Source: a bacterium
Lineage (GTDB): Bacteria; Planctomycetota; UBA1135; GCA-002686595
Reading direction: 5' to 3'
Length of the DNA stretch: 64,000 bases
Assembly: GCA_024226735.1 (NCBI GenBank)
Contig: JAAELL010000602.1
Span: forward strand, 1 to 64,000
Shown: piece by piece, positions 1 to 21,090 of the stretch
Layout of the letters: the number at the start of each line of letters is the position of its first letter
Numbering within the stretch: the first letter of the stretch is position 1
The notes under the pieces: model-generated
The model's database searches: none
Seen by the model: the letters and a program-made list of their open reading frames with translations, nothing else
What the model was told of the DNA's origin: nothing
Made by a program: the position numbers and the translations under genes

Positions 1-135
1 CGCCATGACGACATCCTCCACGCCCGGTCGGCACCTGAAAGCCTCCCCGAATCCACGAATTCGCCTACGTTTCCAGGCGCCAACCGGACGCGGATGCTGT
101 CGCCCTGGCATCCGAAGCACTTCTTCAACGGGCTG

Positions 136-630
136 CTAGAGCCACTGCACGATCTCAATGAGGTTGCCCGCGGGGTCGTTGAACATCACGTAGCGTGAGC
201 TCGGCTTTGGAGAGCCAAACTCCTCGATGCCCCAGGGAAGCTCGACCTTCGCCTCACGTAGGGCCTTCACGGCCTCGTCGAGGTCCGGAACGGACAGAGC
301 GAACATCGGCCATCGGCGCTTCGGATCGTGAGGCGACTCGAGCTTCCCCTCCATGATCGCCACGAAGGTGCCGTCGGTGTCGAGGATGTAGGGCGATGTG
401 CTCGTGCTCTTGCGCTTCAATCCCAAGACGTCGTCGTAGAACTTTGCTGTTGCCTCGATCTTCTCGGCCTCGGCCCAGACCGTCATGACCGCAACTTGGT
501 TCGTCGGCCTGCTTCGCTCGGTCTCTTTCTCATTCGCGTGCGGGTCTTGGCTCGCGTGCGAGAGGTCACAACTTGGCAGTGCCGAGAGCATCGGGGCAGC
601 CAAGGCGAGAATGATGGTTGAGGTCTTCAT
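136..630 (-). CDS. VOC/glyoxalase-fold secreted protein
   Basis: The 164-residue product has a hydrophobic N-terminal leader with a possible lipobox (LPSC, Cys21), so it is probably exported or membrane-anchored. Residues ~47-164 form one vicinal-oxygen-chelate module: a beta-alpha-beta start (VWAEAEKIEATAKFYDDVLG), a middle VPDLDEAVKAL segment and the closing NDPAGNLIEIVQW motif, whose Glu is a usual metal ligand in this superfamily. A GGAG ribosome site lies 8 bases upstream of the ATG. Substrate cannot be told; the superfamily covers glyoxalases, dioxygenases and resistance proteins. An exported VOC protein is less common than a cytoplasmic one. Just upstream on the same strand is a broken luciferase-like gene. 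Confidence 0.8.
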   Translation of the reverse strand: MKTSTIILALAAPMLSALPSCDLSHASQDPHANEKETERSRPTNQVAVMTVWAEAEKIEATAKFYDDVLGLKRKSTSTSPYILDTDGTFVAIMEGKLESPHDPKRRWPMFALSVPDLDEAVKALREAKVELPWGIEEFGSPKPSSRYVMFNDPAGNLIEIVQWL

Positions 631-12211: not shown

Positions 12212-13453
12212 ATGAGCGAGTCAGCCGAGACATTCCGAGCCAAGGTCTGGAACGAGGACGAGCAGACGTACCGCTTCGCCGAAGTGGACTCGAACGTGCG
12301 GCGGCTTGTGTCGTTCCATGAGGAGCTGCGCGACGATCTGGTGGGGACGGGCTACATTGTGCAGACCGGGGAGTCTGAGGCCCGACTACTGTTCGCACCG
12401 TTCGGAGAGCTCGCGCAAATCGCCGAGTCCAGAGTCGTGCTCGTCTGCGCCGTGCACCTCAGCGGCGTCACGTACATGCTCCGGCACGCCATCGAGGCGC
12501 GCACGACGCGGACGGGAAAATGGGGGCGCTGCTGGGTCACGGACCCTGAAACGGAGCACGATACGCCTGAGCGGTGGTTGAGGTTCCTGGGGCAAGAGCT
12601 GAAGCAGGCCCGTCAGGGGGCGGTCTTCCGGAATCTCGTGTGTGCGATCATGAGCTTGCCGCTGATGCCGGAACCGGTCGTCTGGGTCCTAGCGGAGAGG
12701 GGGGCTCGACGTGCGCCTCCTGAGCCGGCCTTGGGCCAGCGTGTGCCATTCGACCAGCTGCTCCGGGAGCCCGAGGCGCCCGCGGAAGAGGCAGTCGTGC
12801 TCGATGTGGGGGACGGCGGCGCGGCGCCCACACGAGTCCCTGAGCCGACCTGGGTTGAGCCGCTCCCGGGTCACAACCACGCACTTTCTTGGGACGCGGA
12901 GCAACGGGTCGCTGGTGTGCGGGTTGGGCCGACGGTGTACGAGCTGCGAACCCCCGTCGAGCTCACGCGCAGCGAGGTCGCCGGGCATGTGTGCATCGGC
13001 TGCGCGGCGCTGCCGGTGCTCGAGGTGGCGGGCGAGGATTGGCCCCACGCGCTGCACGCCTGGGCGGGCGCGTTCCACGCAGCGTTCCAGGTGGCGCGCC
13101 GCAAGCACTTCGCGGGCGTGGGGGGAAGCTGGGAGCACTTCGCAGCAGCAGTCGACTTGGAAGCGTACGACGCGCAGCGTACTCAGGTGGAGCGCGAGGT
13201 CGGTGTGGTGGTCGACAGTGGGGCCTCGCACCGCGTGATCGAGTGGCTCGGTCAGAGCGAGCCGGAGCGCGTCGAATTCGGCGATGCGGATCCGGCTTTC
13301 AGCGGGCTCAACGTGGGCGAGTGGTTCGAGGCGAGCGTCGAAAGGCTCGTTGCGAGCTGGGCCCTTATCGGACTGTATTCGCCCCGACTACTGCCCGCCG
13401 AAGACGCCGAAGACGACGAGGCGTTCGAGGAATTCCTCGCGGGAGGGACCTGA
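12212..13453 (+). CDS. unknown 413-residue protein paired with an MBL-fold enzyme
   Basis: No family is recognised. The N-terminal half (~1-170) is mixed alpha/beta, followed by an acidic/proline linker (~180-220) and a C-terminal half rich in Trp and acidic residues, ending AEDAEDDEAFEEFL. No signal peptide or transmembrane helix, so cytoplasmic. ATG 12212 (MSESAETF) is preferred; TTG at 12167 would add 15 residues. Neither has a clear ribosome site. The TGA is one base before the TTG of the MBL gene, so the two are co-translated. Function cannot be named. Confidence 0.6.
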   Translation: MSESAETFRAKVWNEDEQTYRFAEVDSNVRRLVSFHEELRDDLVGTGYIVQTGESEARLLFAPFGELAQIAESRVVLVCAVHLSGVTYMLRHAIEARTTRTGKWGRCWVTDPETEHDTPERWLRFLGQELKQARQGAVFRNLVCAIMSLPLMPEPVVWVLAERGARRAPPEPALGQRVPFDQLLREPEAPAEEAVVLDVGDGGAAPTRVPEPTWVEPLPGHNHALSWDAEQRVAGVRVGPTVYELRTPVELTRSEVAGHVCIGCAALPVLEVAGEDWPHALHAWAGAFHAAFQVARRKHFAGVGGSWEHFAAAVDLEAYDAQRTQVEREVGVVVDSGASHRVIEWLGQSEPERVEFGDADPAFSGLNVGEWFEASVERLVASWALIGLYSPRLLPAEDAEDDEAFEEFLAGGT

Positions 13454-13454
13454 G

Positions 13455-14561
13455 TTGGACGCCGACCCGTCCCTCTTCGTTCTCGACATCGGTCAAGGCG
13501 CCTGCAGCGTCATCCGGGTCGACGACCATCACGCGATCGTGATCGACTGCGGGAGCTCGGCCCAGGAGGCGCGAGACTTGCTCCGTGACCTCGGGGTGGG
13601 GAAGATCGCACTCCTCGTCGTGTCGCACAACGACCGGGACCACGCGGACGGGGCGCCGGGGATCCTGGGCGCGTTCGCCGGCCAGGTGGAAGCGCTGGCC
13701 TTCCTGCAAGACCGGCCGATAGAGGATATCCGGTGGTTGAACAAGGCGAAGCAGGCGTTCCGCGGGCACCCGTGGCCGCGGCGCGTGCGACTCGAGGTCG
13801 ACGAGCAGGCGAACGCCCCGAAGGTGCTCTGGCCCCAGCCGGTCAAGGGCGAGCCCCCGCCCGAGCGCCCGCCCGATCCACGTCTCGAGCTCCTCTATCC
13901 CGAGCTCGGTGACAACATGGATGAACAGAGAGTCGGCGACACGAACGGAACCTCCGCCATCGTTGCGTTCGTCCACGGCAACCGGCGCGTCGTGTTCGGC
14001 GCCGACGCGCCGGTTCGGGCTTGGGACGCCGTCCATGCGCGCTTCGGCCAACAACCCTGCGACGTCCTCGTCACGCCGCACCACGGCGGCCTCTTGCTCG
14101 ACACCGACGACGTGGTGCACGAGCGCTCCGAGCTGGAGCGGGTCTTCCGTGACATCGTGCCCCACGAGCACGCCGTGATCTCGGTAGGCTCGAACAACAC
14201 CTACAGCCATCCGCGCGCGTCCTACGTCGCCGCGCTCAAGGCCTCCGGCTGCCGTGTCTTCTGCACGCAGATCACGCGAACCAAGAACAAGGTTGGGAAC
14301 GTTGACGAGCCCGCGTGCGCCGATCTCGGCTCGTTGACGGCTCCCGGCATCCTGCCGCGCGCCGACTACGGGATCTACCCGGGCAAGGCGGTGCGCCGCG
14401 CCCGCTGGATGTCGCCGGGCTTGGCGTGCATGGGAACGGTTGTCGTCCGGCTGCGCGCCACCGGGGCGAAGGTCGAGCGCGAACACATTCACGCGGCGGC
14501 GGTCGCGGCGCTCGCACCGAACCCGAACGGGTTGCTCCCTTTGTGCCGGCGTGAAGTGTGA
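13455..14561 (+). CDS. metallo-beta-lactamase-fold hydrolase (ComEC-like catalytic domain)
   Basis: The 368-residue product begins LFVLDIGQGACSVIRVDDH, the standard opening of the ComEC/Rec2-type MBL domain, and has the metal motif VVSHNDRDHADG (HxxxDH, ~54-65), later RRVVFGADAP and VTPHHGG (~215), then ISVGSNNTYSHPR, all typical of this subgroup. No membrane segments, so it is a free-standing soluble enzyme, not competence channel ComEC. TTG 13455 is chosen because GGGAGGGA lies 8 bases upstream and the preceding gene ends one base earlier. Stand-alone ComEC-like MBLs often sit in conflict or defence cassettes, which is inference here. Confidence 0.82.
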   Translation: MDADPSLFVLDIGQGACSVIRVDDHHAIVIDCGSSAQEARDLLRDLGVGKIALLVVSHNDRDHADGAPGILGAFAGQVEALAFLQDRPIEDIRWLNKAKQAFRGHPWPRRVRLEVDEQANAPKVLWPQPVKGEPPPERPPDPRLELLYPELGDNMDEQRVGDTNGTSAIVAFVHGNRRVVFGADAPVRAWDAVHARFGQQPCDVLVTPHHGGLLLDTDDVVHERSELERVFRDIVPHEHAVISVGSNNTYSHPRASYVAALKASGCRVFCTQITRTKNKVGNVDEPACADLGSLTAPGILPRADYGIYPGKAVRRARWMSPGLACMGTVVVRLRATGAKVEREHIHAAAVAALAPNPNGLLPLCRREV

Positions 14562-14676: not shown

Positions 14677-15657
14677 TCAGTTGCACCCGAGAGGCTGACG
14701 AGGTTGGGATCGGGTTTCGCGACGTAGCACCGTTCCCTTGCCGCCGACGCAGAGTCCTATCTCCGGCACGATTCCCACGAGCTCCGTTCCGCCTGTTTCG
14801 TGCACGACACGCCAGGTGAGGCCTCCGTTGGTCGTGTGGTGCAGATTGCCTTGCATCGTTGTTGCCCAGCCTTCGTTCTCGTTTGCGAACGCGACGTCGT
14901 TGAACTTGCCGCCGCTCGGTCCTGGCAGCGTCGACCATGTTCGGCCTCCGTCGCGGGTGACGAGTAGCGCGCCGCGCGCTGCCAGGACGAAGCCCGTGCG
15001 CGGAGTTGGGAAATGCACGGCGCGCAGCCAGTCGCTCGTGTCGGTCGCGACGCGCGTCCAGGTTGCGCCGGCGTCGAAGGTCGTCAGGAGGGTACCGCTC
15101 GTGCCGACGACGAAGCCGGTGTGCTCGTCGGTGAAGCAGACGTCGCGGTAGGACGCCGCGCGACCGGCCTTGGGCACGTTCGGCGTCAGTGACTCGAAGC
15201 TCCTTCCTCCGTCGCGCGTGCGCAAGAGGACTCCGTCGAGCGCGCTTCCACCCACGACGTAGCCGACGGTCCGGTTCGTGAACCAGGTGCCGGCGAGCCA
15301 GGTCTCGGTCCCCGACTCGCGGCGCTGCCAGCTCGCTCCGCCGTCGTCGGTCGCCAGGAACGTGCCCGCGAACCCGACGGCGTACCCGGTCCGTCGCGTC
15401 GGAAAGTGCACCGCATAGAGGCGTGCGTCGGTTTCGGTCGCGACCGGGCGCCACGTCGCGCCGCCGTCGGTGGTGCGCGCGAGAACATGCGGGTTCGAGT
15501 GCTCGCGGTCGCCGCCGACCGCGACACCATCGCGGGCGTCGGTGAACTCCGCGTCGAGCAGCAGGAACTCGAGCCCGGACGCGGTCGCTGACCAGCTCTG
15601 GGCGGGGGCGGTACAGGCTTGAACGGCGACGATGGCGAGAAGAGCGATGCAGCGCAT
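14677..15657 (-). CDS. secreted Ycf48-like Asp-box beta-propeller
   Basis: The 326-residue protein starts with a signal peptide or lipoprotein signal (IVAVQAC, Cys15). At least six Asp-box motifs follow: TTDGGATWR, TDDGGASWQ, TRDGGRSFE, TFDAGATWT, TRDGGRTWS and TTNGGLTWR, spaced about 45 residues with intervening VHFPT..TGY/F segments. This is a complete propeller of the Ycf48/BNR type. Function outside cells is unknown; in photosynthetic organisms Ycf48 is an assembly factor, which need not apply here. Divergent from the selenoprotein candidate with 57 bases between. Confidence 0.85.
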   Translation of the reverse strand: MRCIALLAIVAVQACTAPAQSWSATASGLEFLLLDAEFTDARDGVAVGGDREHSNPHVLARTTDGGATWRPVATETDARLYAVHFPTRRTGYAVGFAGTFLATDDGGASWQRRESGTETWLAGTWFTNRTVGYVVGGSALDGVLLRTRDGGRSFESLTPNVPKAGRAASYRDVCFTDEHTGFVVGTSGTLLTTFDAGATWTRVATDTSDWLRAVHFPTPRTGFVLAARGALLVTRDGGRTWSTLPGPSGGKFNDVAFANENEGWATTMQGNLHHTTNGGLTWRVVHETGGTELVGIVPEIGLCVGGKGTVLRRETRSQPRQPLGCN

Positions 15658-15714: not shown

Positions 15715-16779
15715 ATGATCGCACACGCCCTTCCAGCCCTCGCTCTCGCTACGTGCACCGCCACGAGCGCGGTCGACGATACGCCAGCCGACAAAACGCC
15801 CGTCGAGCTGGGGCGTGTCGGATGGACGCGCAACCTCGATGAGGCCGCGCAGGCGAGCGCCAAGGACGGCCGGCCCGTGCTGCTCCTCTTCCAGGAGATC
15901 CCTGGCTGAAGCACGTGCAAGGCCTTCGGGGAAGGCCCACTCAGCTTCCCGCCCCTGGTCGAAGCCGCGGAGACGCTCTTCGTCCCGGTCGTGATCCGCA
16001 ACAACGTCGAAGGCTACGAGCGCGAGGTGCTCGAACGCTTCGAGGAGCCGACCTGGAACAACCCGGTCGTGCGCTTCGTCGACGCGAAGCAGAAGGACCT
16101 GATCCCGCGCAAGGACCGCGTGTGGAAGACCGGGCCGCTGCTCGCGCGCATGGAGGCGGCGCTCGAGGCCGCCGAGCGCCCAGTGCCCGACTGGTTCCGC
16201 GCAGTCGCGCTGGAAGTCGGCACGGGCGACGTCGACGTCGCCGCCTTCGCGATGACGTGATTCTGGGAAGGCGAGGCTCACCTGGGTTCGATCCCGGGCG
16301 TGGTCTCCACGCGGGCAGCGTGGCACGAAGGCAAGGAAGTCGTCGAGGTTCGCTACGACGCCGAGCGACTGGCGTTCGAGGACCTGCTCGATCATGCCGT
16401 GCGCGGCGGCGCGGCGGCGCACGTCTACACGACGACGGACCGGCAGCTCCTCGCGGCGACGACCAAGCTCGGAGCGCGGGCTTCGAAGCTGAAGGGCGAC
16501 CCGCGGCCGTCGAAGGATTCCGACCAGCTCTACTACCTGCGTCGCTCGGCGCTGAACTACGTCCCGCTGACCCCCGTGCAGGCGCGGCGCGTCAACGCGG
16601 CGTTCGGCACGCAGGGTGACGCAGGTCGCTGGCTGTCGCCGCGCCAGCGCGCCTGGCGCGAACGCATCCAGAGCGCACTGGCAAACGATCCGAAGAAGCT
16701 CGCGGGGCTACGGCGGCCCGCGCGCGTCCAAGAGCTCGGCGGCTACGAGCTCGAGCTGGCGAAGAGGCTCGCGCGGTGA
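15715..16779 (+). CDS. candidate double-selenocysteine thioredoxin-like/MsrA fusion
   Basis: Reading through in-frame TGA at 15907-15909 and 16258-16260 gives 354 residues. Residues 1-~19 look like an export signal. Residues ~35-165 are thioredoxin-like: RPVLLLFQEIPG-U65-STC68-KAFG, then FVPVVIRNN and WNNPVVRFVD. Residues ~178-260 are MsrA-like: T-U182-FWEGEAHLG, then GVVSTRAAW and KEVVEVRYD, matching the GCFWxxE active site with U at the catalytic Cys and Glu at +5. The rest (YVPLTPVQARRVNAAFG) is a C-terminal extension. The only Cys residues are C14 (signal) and C68. Both TGAs fall exactly at redox positions and each has a SECIS-like hairpin. Likely role: repair of oxidised methionine with a built-in reductant. 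Neighbouring genes use TGA as a normal stop, so this is not global recoding. Confidence 0.85.
15907..15940 (+). promoter_or_regulatory. bacterial SECIS-like element for Sec65
   Basis: TGA 15907-15909 is followed by a 7-bp stem, GGCCTTC (15921-15927) with GAAGGCC (15931-15937), closed by a GGG apical loop. An outer GTG/CAC pairing (15915-15917 with 15938-15940) is separated by a CAA bulge. The apical loop lies about 18-21 bases after the TGA, within the range for bacterial SECIS, which usually carry a conserved G in the loop. Confidence 0.7.
16258..16300 (+). promoter_or_regulatory. bacterial SECIS-like element for Sec182
   Basis: TGA 16258-16260 is followed by CCTGGG (16281-16286) pairing with CCCGGG (16293-16298; one G-U pair) around a six-base loop TTCGAT containing G. 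The loop begins 26 bases after the TGA. The stem happens to resemble a tRNA T-arm, but no other tRNA arms are present. Confidence 0.6.
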
Positions 16780-16796: not shown

Positions 16797-18881
16797 TCAG
16801 GCTACACGCCGAAGCGGTTGCTGCTCGTCGCCTGTCCCGCTCAATCGCGCCTGGCGCGCGCTCGTGTGGATCCCGGTCCACATCACCGCCGCCGTGCCTC
16901 CGAGCAGCAGTCCGACCAGTAGCGCCAGGAGCACCGACGGGCTCGCCGGCGTCCGCGGCGCGCGAGCGGGATCGATCAGGCGCGCGTTCGGGAGCGCACC
17001 TGCGCGCGCGATCGCGGCGTCCTCGCGCTTCGTGCGCAGCTTCGCGACGACGGTGTCGAGCGCTTCGCGTCGGCCGAGCGGATCCTTGAGCAAGCGCTCC
17101 ACCCCCGGCAGCTGGCCGATGCGGGAGCGCAGGGTGTCGAGCTCGCGCAGCAGAGCGTTCTCCTGGTCGCGCACACCATCGACGCGCTTCGCGATCGCTC
17201 GCTCGACGAGCGCCCAGTGGCTCTCGATCGCGGCATCGATGCGCGCCAACTCGTCCTCGGGGTGCGACTCGCGCAGGCTCCGCCAGTCATTGACGATCGC
17301 TTCTTGAGCGGCCAGCTCGGCCTCGAGGCCGAGCTGGCGCGCTCCGAGGTGGGCGACGACGCGCTCGAGGATCGCGGCCATCTCGCGCCGAGCGGCGCGG
17401 ACAGCGTAGTACTCGGACGTGAACGTCGCCTCGAACTCGAGCGCGCGCCGCTCCGTCTTGGCGTAGTCGCCGATGTGGTGCAGCGTGAGCGCGTCGACCG
17501 TGACCGCGCCCTCCTTGGCGTTCTCTTCCCCCAGTCGGCCGAGCACCGAGCGATCGCCCGCCGCGAGTCCGGCGAGGATCAGGTCGAGCCCGATCAGCTT
17601 CGACTCGAGCTGCGCGCGTAGCCGCTCATCATCGGCGAGCTTGATCTGGAGCGTGCTCGTCAACATGCCCGGCCCTTCGCGGGCGACGCGCGTGCGCTCG
17701 TCCTCCAGGACGCCGATGAACTCGAGGTAGCGCCGCGCCACGGGGTCATCGAGGTCGGAACCCAAGCGCGAGACGGAGGCGCGATCGCCCGCGCGCACCA
17801 GCTCGTCGACGTCCTGCAGCGAGCGGCGCAAGCGACTGACCCGCGCCAGATCGGTGCTCGTGGCCGTCTGGCGCTGGTTGAGCTGCGTGAATGCCTTGTC
17901 GATCTCGATCGCGTCGGGGAAGAGCTCCAGGATGCGCGCGATCTCACGATCGATCACCGCGAGCTCGCCTTCGCGGCTGACGAGCTCGCGCTCGACGTAC
18001 TCGATCGCGCGATCGGCGCGTTCGAGCGTCGCTGCGACGTCGAGCTCCATGTACGTGTCGATCACTGAGCGCGCGATCTCGGCCGCCCGAACGGGGTGCG
18101 TGTCCTCGACGCGGACCCGCACGAGCCCCTCGAACCCCGTGCGCGCCGAGGCTTGCACGCGCTGCTGCACACGGACGGCGGCGTCCTCGGTCGTCAAGCG
18201 CTCGACGCTGAAGCTGCGGTCGTCGCGAACGCCGCGTGTCTCGACCCGTACGCGCAGTCCGGCGAAATGCATCGCCCGGCCAGGCTCGTAGGCAAAGATC
18301 TCCGGCTCGTTCTCGGGCCATTCGATGCCCGGCGCGCCCGAGGCGTGCGAGAGGACGCAGCGATCTCCGTCGACGAAGCGCACGCGGATCTGGCGTGCGG
18401 CGTCGGGGCTCATCGGCTCGAGCGCCGCGAAGAGGCGGAAGTCGGCGGACGTGTCGCCGGTGAGACCGCGGAAGAACGTCTTGAGCGGCGCGCGCCCCTC
18501 GTCCTCGACCCACGTCGTCAGTCCCATGCGACGCGCGTACTCGGGGTGGTCCGGGGTCGCGAGCTCGCCGTCTGTCGGCGCTTCGACCAGGCTCGCCGCC
18601 AAGTCGTAGGATGCGAGCACGGTCAGGGCCTCACCGACGTCGGTCGTCCCCGTCGGAATGTCGAGCTCTTCCAGAACCGGGCTCTTCGACAGCTCGTCTC
18701 CGACACGGAGACTCGCGGTCGCGACAAAGGTAGGCGTCTTGGAGAGCGTCAGCGCGACGACGATGCACGTGATCGAGAGCGTGATGACGATCGCGGTGAG
18801 CGGACGGCGAAACATGGAACCGGACGCGCGGCGCAGGCGCTTCCAGTCCTCGGTCAAGTCGTACTCGCGCGGGGCGTGCAT
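16797..18881 (-). CDS. Wzz/GumC-like polysaccharide co-polymerase
   Basis: The 694-residue inner-membrane protein has a transmembrane helix near ~26-46 (LTAIVITLSITCIVVALTL), a Wzz-type periplasmic domain, long coiled-coil helices (~290-610, rich in Glu/Arg/Leu/Ala) and a second transmembrane helix near the C-terminus (PSVLLALLVGLLLGGTAA). This is the PCP-2/GumC layout without the cytoplasmic tyrosine-kinase domain. It should set chain length and bridge to the export channel. Start ATG 18881 (MHAPREYDL) follows five bases after the Wza-like gene's stop. Confidence 0.85.
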   Translation of the reverse strand: MHAPREYDLTEDWKRLRRASGSMFRRPLTAIVITLSITCIVVALTLSKTPTFVATASLRVGDELSKSPVLEELDIPTGTTDVGEALTVLASYDLAASLVEAPTDGELATPDHPEYARRMGLTTWVEDEGRAPLKTFFRGLTGDTSADFRLFAALEPMSPDAARQIRVRFVDGDRCVLSHASGAPGIEWPENEPEIFAYEPGRAMHFAGLRVRVETRGVRDDRSFSVERLTTEDAAVRVQQRVQASARTGFEGLVRVRVEDTHPVRAAEIARSVIDTYMELDVAATLERADRAIEYVERELVSREGELAVIDREIARILELFPDAIEIDKAFTQLNQRQTATSTDLARVSRLRRSLQDVDELVRAGDRASVSRLGSDLDDPVARRYLEFIGVLEDERTRVAREGPGMLTSTLQIKLADDERLRAQLESKLIGLDLILAGLAAGDRSVLGRLGEENAKEGAVTVDALTLHHIGDYAKTERRALEFEATFTSEYYAVRAARREMAAILERVVAHLGARQLGLEAELAAQEAIVNDWRSLRESHPEDELARIDAAIESHWALVERAIAKRVDGVRDQENALLRELDTLRSRIGQLPGVERLLKDPLGRREALDTVVAKLRTKREDAAIARAGALPNARLIDPARAPRTPASPSVLLALLVGLLLGGTAAVMWTGIHTSARQARLSGTGDEQQPLRRVA

Positions 18882-18885
18882 GCTA

Positions 18886-19587
18886 TCAGCGAATGAGCGG
18901 TGTCTCGACGACGTTGCGCGTCGTGAACCCGAGGCCCGAGAGGATCGGCAAGATGTCTTCCTGGAAGTCGTCGACGCCCGTTTGGCGCACGAACACGATG
19001 TCGCCGGGGAGCAGCTGCACCAGTCCGCCCGCATCGGGCGTGCGTGCGTTGAAGAGGTGCACCTCGATGCGGTCGCCGTGGGGTCGGATCAAGAAGACGT
19101 TCTTGCGGTCGGCGCCGCGCACGTAGTGGCCACCGGTCGACAGCGCCTCGAGGGCATTGATCTGACGGTCCATCCGTTTGCGCCCAGGCTCCGAGATGTG
19201 CCCGAGGACGTAGTAGTCGCGCGAGTCGTAGGACACGACGCTCGTCGACACGTGCGGCTCGAGGACGAACTCGCCGTACGCGGCTTCGACCTCCTCGTTG
19301 ATCCGCGAGAGCGACTTGCCGGCTGCGTCGTACTTACCGATCAGCGGCAAGTACAAGAAGCCCTGTGGGTCGACGCGGATGCCGTCCTGCGGCGACGACA
19401 GCTCGGGATGCCCGATGAAGTGGACACGCAGGACGTCATTCGGGCCGATGCCGAGCCAGCTCCAGTCGCGTTCGGTCGTCACGGTCGTCACGTCCGCGTC
19501 CGAAGACGGAGCGGCCGCCGTCATGCAGGACGGCGTACAGGCGCAGAGACAAAGCGCTAGCCAGAGCGCGAGCTTCGGGCGGAACAC
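18886..19587 (-). CDS. Wza-like polysaccharide export lipoprotein
   Basis: The 233-residue lipoprotein (signal with CLCAC and PSC candidates near residues 16-21) carries the polysaccharide biosynthesis/export domain: WLGIGPNDVLRVHFIGHPEL ... IRVDPQGFLYLPLIGKYDAAGKSL ... INEEVEAAYGEFVLEPHVS, followed by an SLBB-like part (YYVLGHISEPG ... ALEALSTGGHY ... LLPGDIVFVRQ). It is shorter than E. coli Wza and lacks an obvious C-terminal amphipathic outer-membrane helix. It forms the export unit with the Wzz-like gene directly downstream. Confidence 0.9.
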   Translation of the reverse strand: MFRPKLALWLALCLCACTPSCMTAAAPSSDADVTTVTTERDWSWLGIGPNDVLRVHFIGHPELSSPQDGIRVDPQGFLYLPLIGKYDAAGKSLSRINEEVEAAYGEFVLEPHVSTSVVSYDSRDYYVLGHISEPGRKRMDRQINALEALSTGGHYVRGADRKNVFLIRPHGDRIEVHLFNARTPDAGGLVQLLPGDIVFVRQTGVDDFQEDILPILSGLGFTTRNVVETPLIR

Positions 19588-19800
19588 GTCGGGGGGACTT
19601 CGTGGTGGGGGGGGACGGATCGGATTGGGGACAACCCTGTGTCCTTATCGGTCTCCGGGCCCCGGCGGCAAAAGGGGAACCAGGTTTCGAAGGCGACCGG
19701 ACGCGCGGGAGCTCGCGCGCGGTGGAATTTCTTTCCGGATCGGGGCTCGATTCGAGAACGGACACCGAGTCGGAGCGCGCGGTGGTCGAAAGAGAAGCGA

Positions 19801-21090
19801 ATGCAGCCGCCGCCCCCCCGCGCCCGTGGCCGCGTCGTCGCGCTCGTCGATCAGGCGCTCGTCAGCGGTGTCAACTTCGCGACCAGCGTCCTGCTCGTGC
19901 GTGCTCTGGGACTGCAGATGTTCGGCACCTACAGCCTCGTCTGGCTGCTCGTGCTCTTCGCGGTCGGCCTTGGCCAAGCGCTCGTGGTGCAGCCGCTCCT
20001 GACGTTCGTCCCCAAGTGTGCGGAGCGCGAACGAGAGAGCTACCTGGCCGCTGCCGCTCGCCTCGAGCTGATCTTCCTCGGCGCCACCGCACTCGGCATG
20101 GGCGCCGCCTACGCCTTCGTCCTCGCGCACTGGGATGCTCCCGAGCTCGCCGGCACGCTGCCGGCGTTCCTGGTCGCGCTCCTCGGCCGTCAGGCGCAGA
20201 GCTTCTCCCGCGGCGTGGCATTCGCGACCGCGCGCCAGGACCGCGCGCTCGTGTGCGACGCGGTGGGGTACGGCGGTCAGCTGCTGCTGCTCGCGGTGCT
20301 CTCGGCCACCGGCCGGCTGGATCTGCGAACTGCGCTCCAGGCGGTCGGCGCCGCATCCGCCGTGGGTGCGGTGACCGGTGCCGTGAGCCTTGCACGCGCT
20401 CGGCTCGAGCCAGGCGAGCTCGCGCGCGCGGCGGGCCGGCACTGGACCTTCGCGCGCTGGCTCGCCGGCATGTCCGTCGTGCAGTGGTTCTCGTCCAACT
20501 TCTTCCTGGTGGCCGCCGCCGGACTCCTCGGATCGGCGGCAGTGGGAGCGATCAAGGCGGCTCAAGCCGTGATCGGCGTCTTGCACGTGCTCTTTCTCGC
20601 AATGGAGAACGTCGTGCCCGTGGTCGCGGCGCGGCTGCTGGTCGAGCGTGGGCGCGGCGCGATGCTCGACTACCTCACGCGCGTCGGAGCGTTCGGTCTC
20701 GGCGCGACCGTCTTGGTCGCCGCGCTCGTCGCGGGTGGCGCGGAGCTCCTGCTCGCACTGGTCTACGGTGCTCCCGCCGGGCCCGAACCCGTGCTGGCCC
20801 TGCGCGGCCTGGCCCTGCTCTACGTGTTCGCCTACGTGATCTCGGTGCTGCACATCGGCTACCGCACGCTCGAGCGGACTCGCACCGTCGCGCTCGTCTA
20901 CGTGGGGTGCACGCTGCTCGCCCTCGCGTTCGCGCGCCCGATCGTGGCGCACTTCGGACTTGCGGGGGCCGTGTTCGGGATGGCGGCGCAGCAGGCCATG
21001 TTGGCCATCTCGTTGGGCTTCGCCTTTACGCGCGCGGAGCATTCGGTGCAGTCGGCGGAGCTGTCCGCGCGTCGTCGAACGGTGGCGTGA
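19801..21090 (+). CDS. Wzx-like polysaccharide flippase (MATE/MVF fold)
   Basis: The 429-residue polytopic protein (about 12 helices) starts VVALVDQALVSGVNFATSVL with the usual Wzx N-terminal segment LLVRALGLQMFGTYSLVWLL. It should flip lipid-linked repeat units across the inner membrane. ATG 19801 is preferred because the upstream extension is charged and non-hydrophobic. It is divergent from the wza/wzz pair, and the 213 bases between (19588-19800) should hold both promoters; I cannot assign -35/-10 boxes with confidence. Confidence 0.85.
   Translation: MQPPPPRARGRVVALVDQALVSGVNFATSVLLVRALGLQMFGTYSLVWLLVLFAVGLGQALVVQPLLTFVPKCAERERESYLAAAARLELIFLGATALGMGAAYAFVLAHWDAPELAGTLPAFLVALLGRQAQSFSRGVAFATARQDRALVCDAVGYGGQLLLLAVLSATGRLDLRTALQAVGAASAVGAVTGAVSLARARLEPGELARAAGRHWTFARWLAGMSVVQWFSSNFFLVAAAGLLGSAAVGAIKAAQAVIGVLHVLFLAMENVVPVVAARLLVERGRGAMLDYLTRVGAFGLGATVLVAALVAGGAELLLALVYGAPAGPEPVLALRGLALLYVFAYVISVLHIGYRTLERTRTVALVYVGCTLLALAFARPIVAHFGLAGAVFGMAAQQAMLAISLGFAFTRAEHSVQSAELSARRRTVA

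What the first reader, a model, noticed from the sequence alone, without database searches (positions are those of the whole stretch)
15715..16779. MsrA-type active site with no cysteine to resolve it: an internal reductant?
The MsrA part contains no Cys at all. The only thiol/selenol pair elsewhere in the mature protein is U65/C68. The fused UxxC domain could reduce the oxidised Sec182, making a self-contained methionine sulfoxide repair enzyme outside the cytoplasm.
Basis: inference. Interest (0 to 1): 0.68.

Follow-up and report, generated by a model that had tools for sequence, protein, structure and literature searches.

The report
Two-selenocysteine thioredoxin–MsrA-like fusion protein
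A planctomycete gene encodes an apparently exported protein with a selenium-based thioredoxin-like half fused to a selenium-based half resembling a methionine-repair enzyme; most relatives carry a helper cysteine that this copy has lost, which fits, but does not prove, that the first half recharges the second.

Summary
Reading both in-frame TGAs as Sec gives a 354-residue protein with U65-S-T-C68 and U182 and no Cys after C68. The genome carries SelA, SelB and tRNA-Sec, and the frame is conserved across both TGAs. The protein belongs to a named family, NF041383 (VPGUxxT thioredoxin-like selenoprotein, type 2). A 2026 review lists it as hypothetical protein OS_HP5 with one Sec. Its second half is an MsrA-fold domain closest to the Clostridium oremlandii Sec-MsrA, with the catalytic Glu kept (59 of 59) but the substrate loop, pocket tyrosines and His replaced.

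All ten rows without C233 keep U65xxC68; two rows that lost residue 65 kept C182 and C233. U182 never occurs without U65 (30 of 30). These patterns fit UxxC as reductant of the MsrA-like centre, through C233 in most relatives and directly here. Samples are small, geometry could not be computed, activity and substrate are untested. Partly supported; new variant of a known kind.

The parts
15715..16779 (+). Whole gene, 354 codons plus TGA stop, two in-frame TGA codons; member of NF041383
   Evidence: start codon supported by the sister L015 (its ATG is at the same place in the N-terminal stretch)
15715..15774 (+). N-terminal hydrophobic stretch (residues 1-20), probable export signal or lipoprotein signal; no basic residue (K or R) before it in this copy
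   Evidence: maximum mean hydropathy 1.87 here; above 1.6 in 57 of 59 rows
15823..16086 (+). Thioredoxin-like half (residues 37-124, Pfam Thioredoxin_7)
   Evidence: 27.6 bits, gathering score 27
15907..15918 (+). U65-S-T-C68 redox motif (TGA AGC ACG TGC)
   Evidence: U or C at 65 in 58 of 59 rows, C68 in 59 of 59
15910..15950 (+). Candidate SECIS hairpin for U65
   Evidence: -18.1 kcal/mol, z -1.96 for the 44-nt piece; z -0.48 for 61 nt; TGA rows fold better than Cys rows
16228..16686 (+). MsrA-like half with C-terminal helical part (residues 172-324)
   Evidence: model 172..324 against CoMsrA 4lwj 6..210, Z 14.1, rmsd 5.6, 149 aligned
16258..16260 (+). U182, position of the MsrA catalytic Cys/Sec (T-U-F-W)
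   Evidence: W184 in 59 of 59 rows
16273..16290 (+). Candidate SECIS stem-loop for U182 (5 of 7 pairs here; 7 of 7 in 19 of 29 TGA rows)
16336..16338 (+). E208, aligned with the catalytic Glu55 of CoMsrA
   Evidence: E in 59 of 59 rows
16411..16413 (+). A233 (GCG): site where 49 of 59 rows have the candidate resolving Cys

Best explanation
It is an apparently exported two-domain selenoprotein oxidoreductase. The N-terminal thioredoxin-like half (U65xxC68) takes electrons from an envelope reductant, which I did not identify. The C-terminal half is derived from a C. oremlandii-type Sec-MsrA; its selenol U182, helped by E208, reduces an oxidised substrate (a sulfoxide or a related oxidised sulfur group) and becomes oxidised. 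In most relatives C233 forms a bond with residue 182, which the UxxC half then reduces. In this protein and a few others C233 is gone, and U65 must attack oxidised U182 directly, giving a diselenide that C68 resolves. Shown: the two-Sec reading frame, the two domains, the conserved C68, E208 and W184, the usual presence of C233 and its loss here. Inferred: the electron flow, that it happens within one chain, the C233 role, the substrate, and export of this copy.
For: Family and domains. MsrA fold with the helical part of CoMsrA; profile match to stand-alone MsrA of relatives, hhalign E 1.1e-20 over 147 columns. E208 and W184 in 59 of 59 rows. C68 in 59 of 59, C233 in 49 of 59; C233 falls on the active-site Tyr of MsrA ('QYRS') in 5 of 6 MAFFT runs and in both hhalign runs. 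U182 only with U65: 30 of 30; single-Sec rows are 12 U65/C182 against 0 C65/U182. On the tree, none of the 9 changes at site 65 falls on branches with U182 at both ends, which hold 40% of the length (chance about 0.01). All 10 rows without C233 keep U65xxC68, whereas two rows that lost residue 65 (L016, L071) keep C182 and C233. One paralogue, L065, has lost residues 65, 68, 182 and 233 together and has E208 changed to D. Precedents: Clostridium Sec-MsrA without any Cys is regenerated by a glutaredoxin that is itself UxxC (U13/C16) (PMC4479559, parts 1-3 of 4 read; PMC4333827, part 1 of 4 read), and PilB carries a thioredoxin-like domain fused to Msr domains (PMC6210582, passages).
Against: CoMsrA is not reducible by thioredoxin, only by glutaredoxin (PMC4479559), so a thioredoxin-like domain might not serve a Cys-less Sec centre. 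In PilB the N-terminal domain reduces MsrB within the chain but MsrA only between chains (PMC6210582), so fusion does not prove an internal relay. The U182-with-U65 pattern is partly explained by genomes that lost Sec altogether, which changes both sites. Independent-pair tests were not significant (3 and 9 pairs), and the absence of C233 loss on non-U65 branches has a chance of 0.18. The MsrA substrate loop, the pocket tyrosines and the His are replaced, so sulfoxide reduction itself is doubtful. L016 and L071 show that the MsrA-like half can persist without residue 65. No structure of the domain pair was obtained. Type 1 relatives (L133, L134) keep UxxC without a recognisable MsrA half, so the thioredoxin half must also have other partners.
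Confidence: 0.5

Rival explanations
1. The two halves work between molecules: U182 (or its bond with C233 in relatives) is recharged by another envelope thioredoxin- or glutaredoxin-like protein or by a low-molecular-weight thiol, while the UxxC half is a general reductase that merely shares the polypeptide.
For: PilB MsrA is reduced between molecules (PMC6210582, passages); CoMsrA uses a separate Grx (PMC4479559); type 1 relatives have the UxxC half without an MsrA half; L016 and L071 lost residue 65 but kept C182 and C233.
Against: All 10 rows without C233 keep U65xxC68 and U182 never occurs without U65 (30 of 30).
Confidence: 0.27
2. The MsrA-like half is no longer a sulfoxide reductase. 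Without the substrate loop and pocket tyrosines it is a selenol redox site for another substrate, for example sulfenic acids, peroxides or disulfides of envelope proteins. (This concerns the substrate and can be true together with either view of the electron flow.)
For: Site 203 is W, F, S or H instead of Tyr, site 270 D or E (57 of 59) instead of His, the substrate loop present in the four stand-alone MsrAs is absent, and the active-site Tyr is Cys in 49 of 59; NCBIfam msrA equivalog score 17.6 against a cut-off of 108.1. The genome also has a stand-alone Sec-MsrA and two Cys-MsrA (L101-L103).
Against: The catalytic Glu and the U/C-[FY]-W signature are kept in 59 of 59 rows.
Confidence: 0.4
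3. In this copy the loss of C233 marks a decaying gene: TGA182 is poorly decoded or read as a stop and mainly the thioredoxin-like half (residues 1-181) is made.
For: The window's stem after TGA182 has 5 of 7 pairs and a z near 0; a redox-dead paralogue exists elsewhere (L065).
Against: Five other rows of its clade that also carry TGA182 have a similarly weak stem (L010, L015, L017, L037, L038: 4 to 6 of 7 pairs), so weakness is not special to it; the frame after TGA182 is open and conserved, with W184, E208 and Q289 intact.
Confidence: 0.1

Closest known systems
NF041383 / VPGUxxT family thioredoxin-like (seleno)protein type 2 (OS_HP5)
   Same: Full-length match, 390.6 bits against a cut-off of 275; the profile already spans both halves.
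   Different: A 2026 review table lists it as a hypothetical protein with motif VPGU and 'No. of Sec' 1 (PMC13188914, passages); in the passages found, no MsrA relation, second Sec or resolving Cys is mentioned for it. In the rows gathered here 30 of 59 have two Sec, and the motif is VPG[U/C]xxC.
Clostridium oremlandii Sec-MsrA (CoMsrA) with its Sec-glutaredoxin (UxxC)
   Same: Sec in the catalytic place, no Cys in the MsrA part of this copy, C-terminal helical part, catalytic Glu, and a UxxC protein as reductant in the Clostridium pair.
   Different: There the two are separate proteins and the donor is a glutaredoxin (U13/C16); here a Thioredoxin_7-type UxxC domain is fused and export is predicted. 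The substrate loop and pocket tyrosines differ, and most relatives have C233.
Neisseria PilB (thioredoxin-like N-terminal domain fused to MsrA and MsrB)
   Same: Thioredoxin-like domain fused N-terminal to an Msr domain, exported.
   Different: No MsrB; Sec in place of Cys at both centres; MsrA half of the CoMsrA kind; a different thioredoxin-like family (Thioredoxin_7 rather than TlpA-like).

Membership tests
NF041383 (Trx_VPGUxxT_two) | Score above the curated cut-off of 275 bits | tested here: met
   390.6 bits, residues 31-314 against profile 1-286 of 287
NF041383 (Trx_VPGUxxT_two) | PG-U/C motif in a thioredoxin-like half | tested here: met
   IPGUSTC at residues 62-68; Thioredoxin_7 27.6 bits, gathering 27
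MsrA (PF01625 / TIGR00401) | Pfam gathering score | tested here: met
   23.8 against 23.7, residues 176-207 only: marginal; the sister L002 (same contig as L015) scores 15.7, below it
MsrA (PF01625 / TIGR00401) | NCBIfam msrA equivalog cut-off | tested here: not met
   17.6 against 108.1 bits
MsrA (PF01625 / TIGR00401) | MsrA fold | tested here: met
   Best structural match CoMsrA 4lwj, Z 14.1, rmsd 5.6, 149 aligned; 5fa9 Z 12.9, rmsd 1.7, 97 aligned; Foldseek E 7.2e-6. MsrA part of the model pLDDT about 60-90
MsrA (PF01625 / TIGR00401) | Catalytic Cys/Sec-[FY]-W and catalytic Glu | tested here: met
   U/C182, [FY]183, W184 and E208 in 59 of 59 rows
MsrA (PF01625 / TIGR00401) | Substrate-pocket tyrosines, substrate loop and YHQ histidine | tested here: not met
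   Site 203 W/F/S/H for Tyr; site 233 Cys in 49 of 59 for Tyr; site 270 D/E in 57 of 59 for His; the loop present in four stand-alone MsrAs is missing
MsrA (PF01625 / TIGR00401) | Reduces methionine-S-sulfoxide | not testable with these tools
   needs an enzyme assay
1-Cys CoMsrA-type Sec-MsrA | Sec at the catalytic place and no Cys in the MsrA domain | tested here: met
   this copy and 4 more of 59 rows (L021, L022, L024, L029) have no Cys besides site 182 there; L024 has Cys, not Sec, at 182
1-Cys CoMsrA-type Sec-MsrA | C-terminal helical domain | tested here: met
   alignment with 4lwj runs to model residue 324 / chain residue 210; stand-alone Sec-MsrA profile aligned through this part
PilB-type thioredoxin-Msr fusion | Thioredoxin-like half recharges the Msr half | not testable with these tools
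   only distribution evidence

The most novel reading that the evidence does not exclude
A single exported polypeptide that runs a Sec-to-Sec relay: after the loss of the resolving cysteine, U65 of the thioredoxin half directly attacks oxidised U182 and forms an intramolecular diselenide resolved by C68. This would be the fused counterpart of the separate Sec-glutaredoxin and Sec-MsrA of Clostridium, and relatives with C233 would preserve a three-step relay.
Probability: 0.33. Interest if true: 0.72.

Novelty: new variant of a known kind. Interest (0 to 1): 0.55.

Why it matters
It gives a function hypothesis to a selenoprotein family listed as a hypothetical protein with one Sec, and adds a second Sec in an MsrA-like half. 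The relatives are a natural mutant series (U/U, U/C, C/C, with and without C233, and one with every centre lost) that makes the question how a Sec site without a resolving Cys is recharged directly testable in one polypeptide.

Tried and rejected
Geometry: AlphaFold was run on the window protein with the three relatives the tool admits (collected). Mean pLDDT was 58.6, with most of the thioredoxin half under 50 and no coordinates given, so U65-U182 distance was not judged. A viral-contig scan for more admissible sequences found no relative (32 stretches matched a pattern).

Gene neighbourhood: ORFs within 4 kb of the gene in 8 loci (56 ORFs, picked by length alone) gave no blastp match between loci at E 1e-5; no conserved partner gene was found, so the donor remains unknown. 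The ORF picking is crude.

First mapping of position 233: the single-sequence alignment to CoMsrA pairs 'VYTTTDRQ' with 'VYETTNRQ', which would put 233 about ten residues before the active-site Tyr. Larger alignments and profile alignment place it on that Tyr (5 of 6 MAFFT runs, both hhalign modes; one small-set run placed it at 'HDP'), and the model's strand 236-239 and helix 242-255 fit the second mapping.

Statistics: independent-pair sign tests on the tree were not significant; Fisher tests (182U with 65U p 2e-7; 65U with loss of 233 p 0.049) ignore relatedness and are not relied on. SECIS comparison between TGA and Cys rows is likewise not corrected for relatedness; one TGA182 row (L021, which contains unreadable bases) was left out at site 182, hence 29 rather than 30.

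Rows dropped before counting: of 77 loci with a family match, L034, L065, L079, L080, L082 and L083 were left out of the alignment (71 rows), and L070, L071 (divergent) and L072, L073 (type 1) plus 8 partial rows out of the 59-row set. L065 was examined later and is the redox-dead paralogue. L078 and L081 were fetched but gave no match at the script's threshold.

Literature: searches for VPGUxT, VPGUxxT and NF041383, OS_HP5 and combinations gave no description of the MsrA-like half in their listings or in the passages opened; the original 2007 report of OS_HP5 and the 2011 Sec-glutaredoxin paper are not held, so absence from print is not claimed.

Full report
What is there. window:15715-16779:+ is one gene with two in-frame TGA codons. 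Read with TGA as Sec it gives 354 residues with U65-S-T-C68 and U182; the next TGA (16777) is taken as the stop. Besides C14 in the N-terminal hydrophobic stretch and C68 there is no Cys. The genome (8.99 Mb, 612 contigs) has SelB, SelA and tRNA-Sec above the family cut-offs and a single match to this protein. Two of the three relatives found by protein search in named genomes carry Planctomycetota record titles.

Family. The protein matches NCBIfam NF041383, 'VPGUxxT family thioredoxin-like (seleno)protein, type 2', at 390.6 bits (cut-off 275) over residues 31-314, and type 1 (NF041382) only over the first half. Pfam sees Thioredoxin_7 at 37-124 and, marginally, PMSR at 176-207. A 2026 review lists NF041383 as hypothetical protein OS_HP5 with one Sec (PMC13188914, passages). 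So the family is known; the second Sec and the MsrA relation are not mentioned in the passages seen.

Relatives. Genome searches found members over the cut-off in 27 of 101 near relatives, 36 of 154 genomes of the class and 32 of 392 of the phylum; these sets overlap. From the fetched loci, 71 rows were aligned and 59 full-length two-domain rows kept, the window among them (dropped rows are listed under Tried and rejected). In these 59: site 65 is U in 42, C in 16, G in 1; site 68 is C in 59; site 182 is U in 30, C in 29; site 233 is C in 49. The family motif is thus VPG[U/C]xxC in these rows, despite the family name.

Sec decoding. TGA rows fold better than Cys rows just downstream of both sites (mean z -0.72 against 0.23 at site 65, -1.10 against 0.09 at site 182; not corrected for relatedness). 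At site 182 a 7-bp stem with its loop at a fixed distance is complete in 19 of 29 TGA rows; the best of 29 Cys rows has 5 of 7 pairs. The window has 5 of 7, and the other TGA182 rows of its clade 4 to 6. For the window alone the hairpin evidence at 182 is weak; the case rests on family, frame and machinery.

The second half. The single-sequence search hits the C. oremlandii Sec-MsrA best. The model (mean pLDDT 58.6, MsrA part about 60-90) matches CoMsrA 4lwj first (Foldseek E 7.2e-6; Z 14.1, rmsd 5.6, 149 residues, model 172..324 against 6..210), so the match includes the helical C-terminal part that CoMsrA needs for activity (PMC4333827, part 1 of 4 read). Profile alignment with four stand-alone MsrAs (L101-L103 from the own genome, L104 from G091) gives E 1.1e-20 over 147 columns. 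U/C182, [FY]183, W184 and E208 (Glu55 of CoMsrA) are kept in 59 of 59 rows, but the substrate loop is missing, the Tyr at 203 is W or F in 56 of 59, and the 'YHQ' His is D or E in 57 of 59. It is MsrA-derived; whether it is still a sulfoxide reductase is open, and the msrA equivalog cut-off is clearly failed (17.6 against 108.1).

The missing cysteine. Position 233 aligns with the MsrA active-site Tyr ('QYRS', Tyr90 of CoMsrA on its L2 loop) in 5 of 6 MAFFT runs and both profile alignments. A Cys there would lie at the active site, which makes it a good candidate for the resolving Cys (inference; no coordinates). It is Cys in 49 of 59 rows, including the window's sister L015 (support 98/93), and Ala in the window. 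Ten rows lack it; five have no Cys at all in the MsrA-like half apart from site 182 (L001, the window's own row, and L021, L022, L024, L029).

Do the two centres work together? For: U182 occurs only with U65 (30 of 30), and among rows with one Sec it is always at 65 (12 against 0). None of 9 changes at 65 falls on the 40% of tree length with U182 at both ends (chance about 0.01). All ten rows without C233 keep U65xxC68, while L016 and L071, which lost residue 65, keep C182 and C233. The paralogue L065 lost residues 65, 68, 182 and 233 together. Against or neutral: genomes without Sec change both sites at once; independent-pair tests are not significant; loss of 233 only on U65 branches has a chance of 0.18; type 1 proteins L133 and L134 keep UxxC without a recognisable MsrA half.

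Mechanism. Precedents come from the held literature. CoMsrA, with one Sec and no Cys, is regenerated not by thioredoxin but by glutaredoxin, and the Clostridium Grx1 used is itself U13/C16 (PMC4479559, parts 1-3 of 4 read). In PilB a thioredoxin-like domain is fused to Msr domains, reduces MsrB within the chain and MsrA between chains, and is recharged by nDsbD (PMC6210582, passages). The best reading here is a fused version of the Clostridium pair: donor to U65xxC68, to C233 where present, to residue 182, to substrate; in the window copy U65 to U182 directly. I give 0.5 to the fused halves working together in this way and 0.33 to the direct Sec-Sec relay in one chain.

Location. 57 of 59 rows have a hydrophobic N-terminal stretch (mean hydropathy above 1.6), and 11 of 59 match a loose lipobox pattern, the window not among them. 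Export is likely for the family and plausible for this copy, whose stretch lacks a preceding Lys or Arg. No conserved neighbour was found in 8 loci, so the electron donor is unknown.

Novelty. The family is known; what is new here is the MsrA identity of its second half, the frequent second Sec, the conserved candidate resolving Cys and its loss in this copy. New variant of a known kind.

Noticed in passing
L101 (G000:C435:5000-6900), L104 (G091:C23): Stand-alone Sec-MsrA (GUFWG) with an N-terminal hydrophobic stretch and a Cys in the loop after HDP/HNP ('HDPC', 'HNPC'); the own genome thus has a separate Sec-MsrA besides two Cys-MsrA (L102, L103).
   Followed up: partly
L065 (G037:C33:2000-5300): Full-length family paralogue with residues 65, 68, 182 and 233 all lost (no Cys or Sec) and E208 changed to D; the same genome keeps a normal Cys copy (L023).
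   Followed up: partly
L133, L134 (G376:C83, G336:C21): Type 1 VPGUxxT proteins (NF041382): UxxC half with a C-terminal half without Cys in the matched stretch (same genes as L073 and L072) and, for L133, no good Pfam match.
   Followed up: partly
window 14677-15657, strand -: Divergent neighbour ORF with repeated 'TTDGGATW'-like motifs and an N-terminal hydrophobic stretch ending in Cys, resembling BNR/Ycf48-type repeat proteins (resemblance recalled, not searched).
   Followed up: no
window 13284-14561, strand +: ORF with 'HNDRDHADG', resembling a metallo-beta-lactamase-fold (ComEC-like) hydrolase (resemblance recalled, not searched).
   Followed up: no
window 16797-21090: ORFs on both strands resembling polysaccharide chain-length, export and flippase proteins lie next to the gene (resemblance recalled, not searched).
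   Followed up: no
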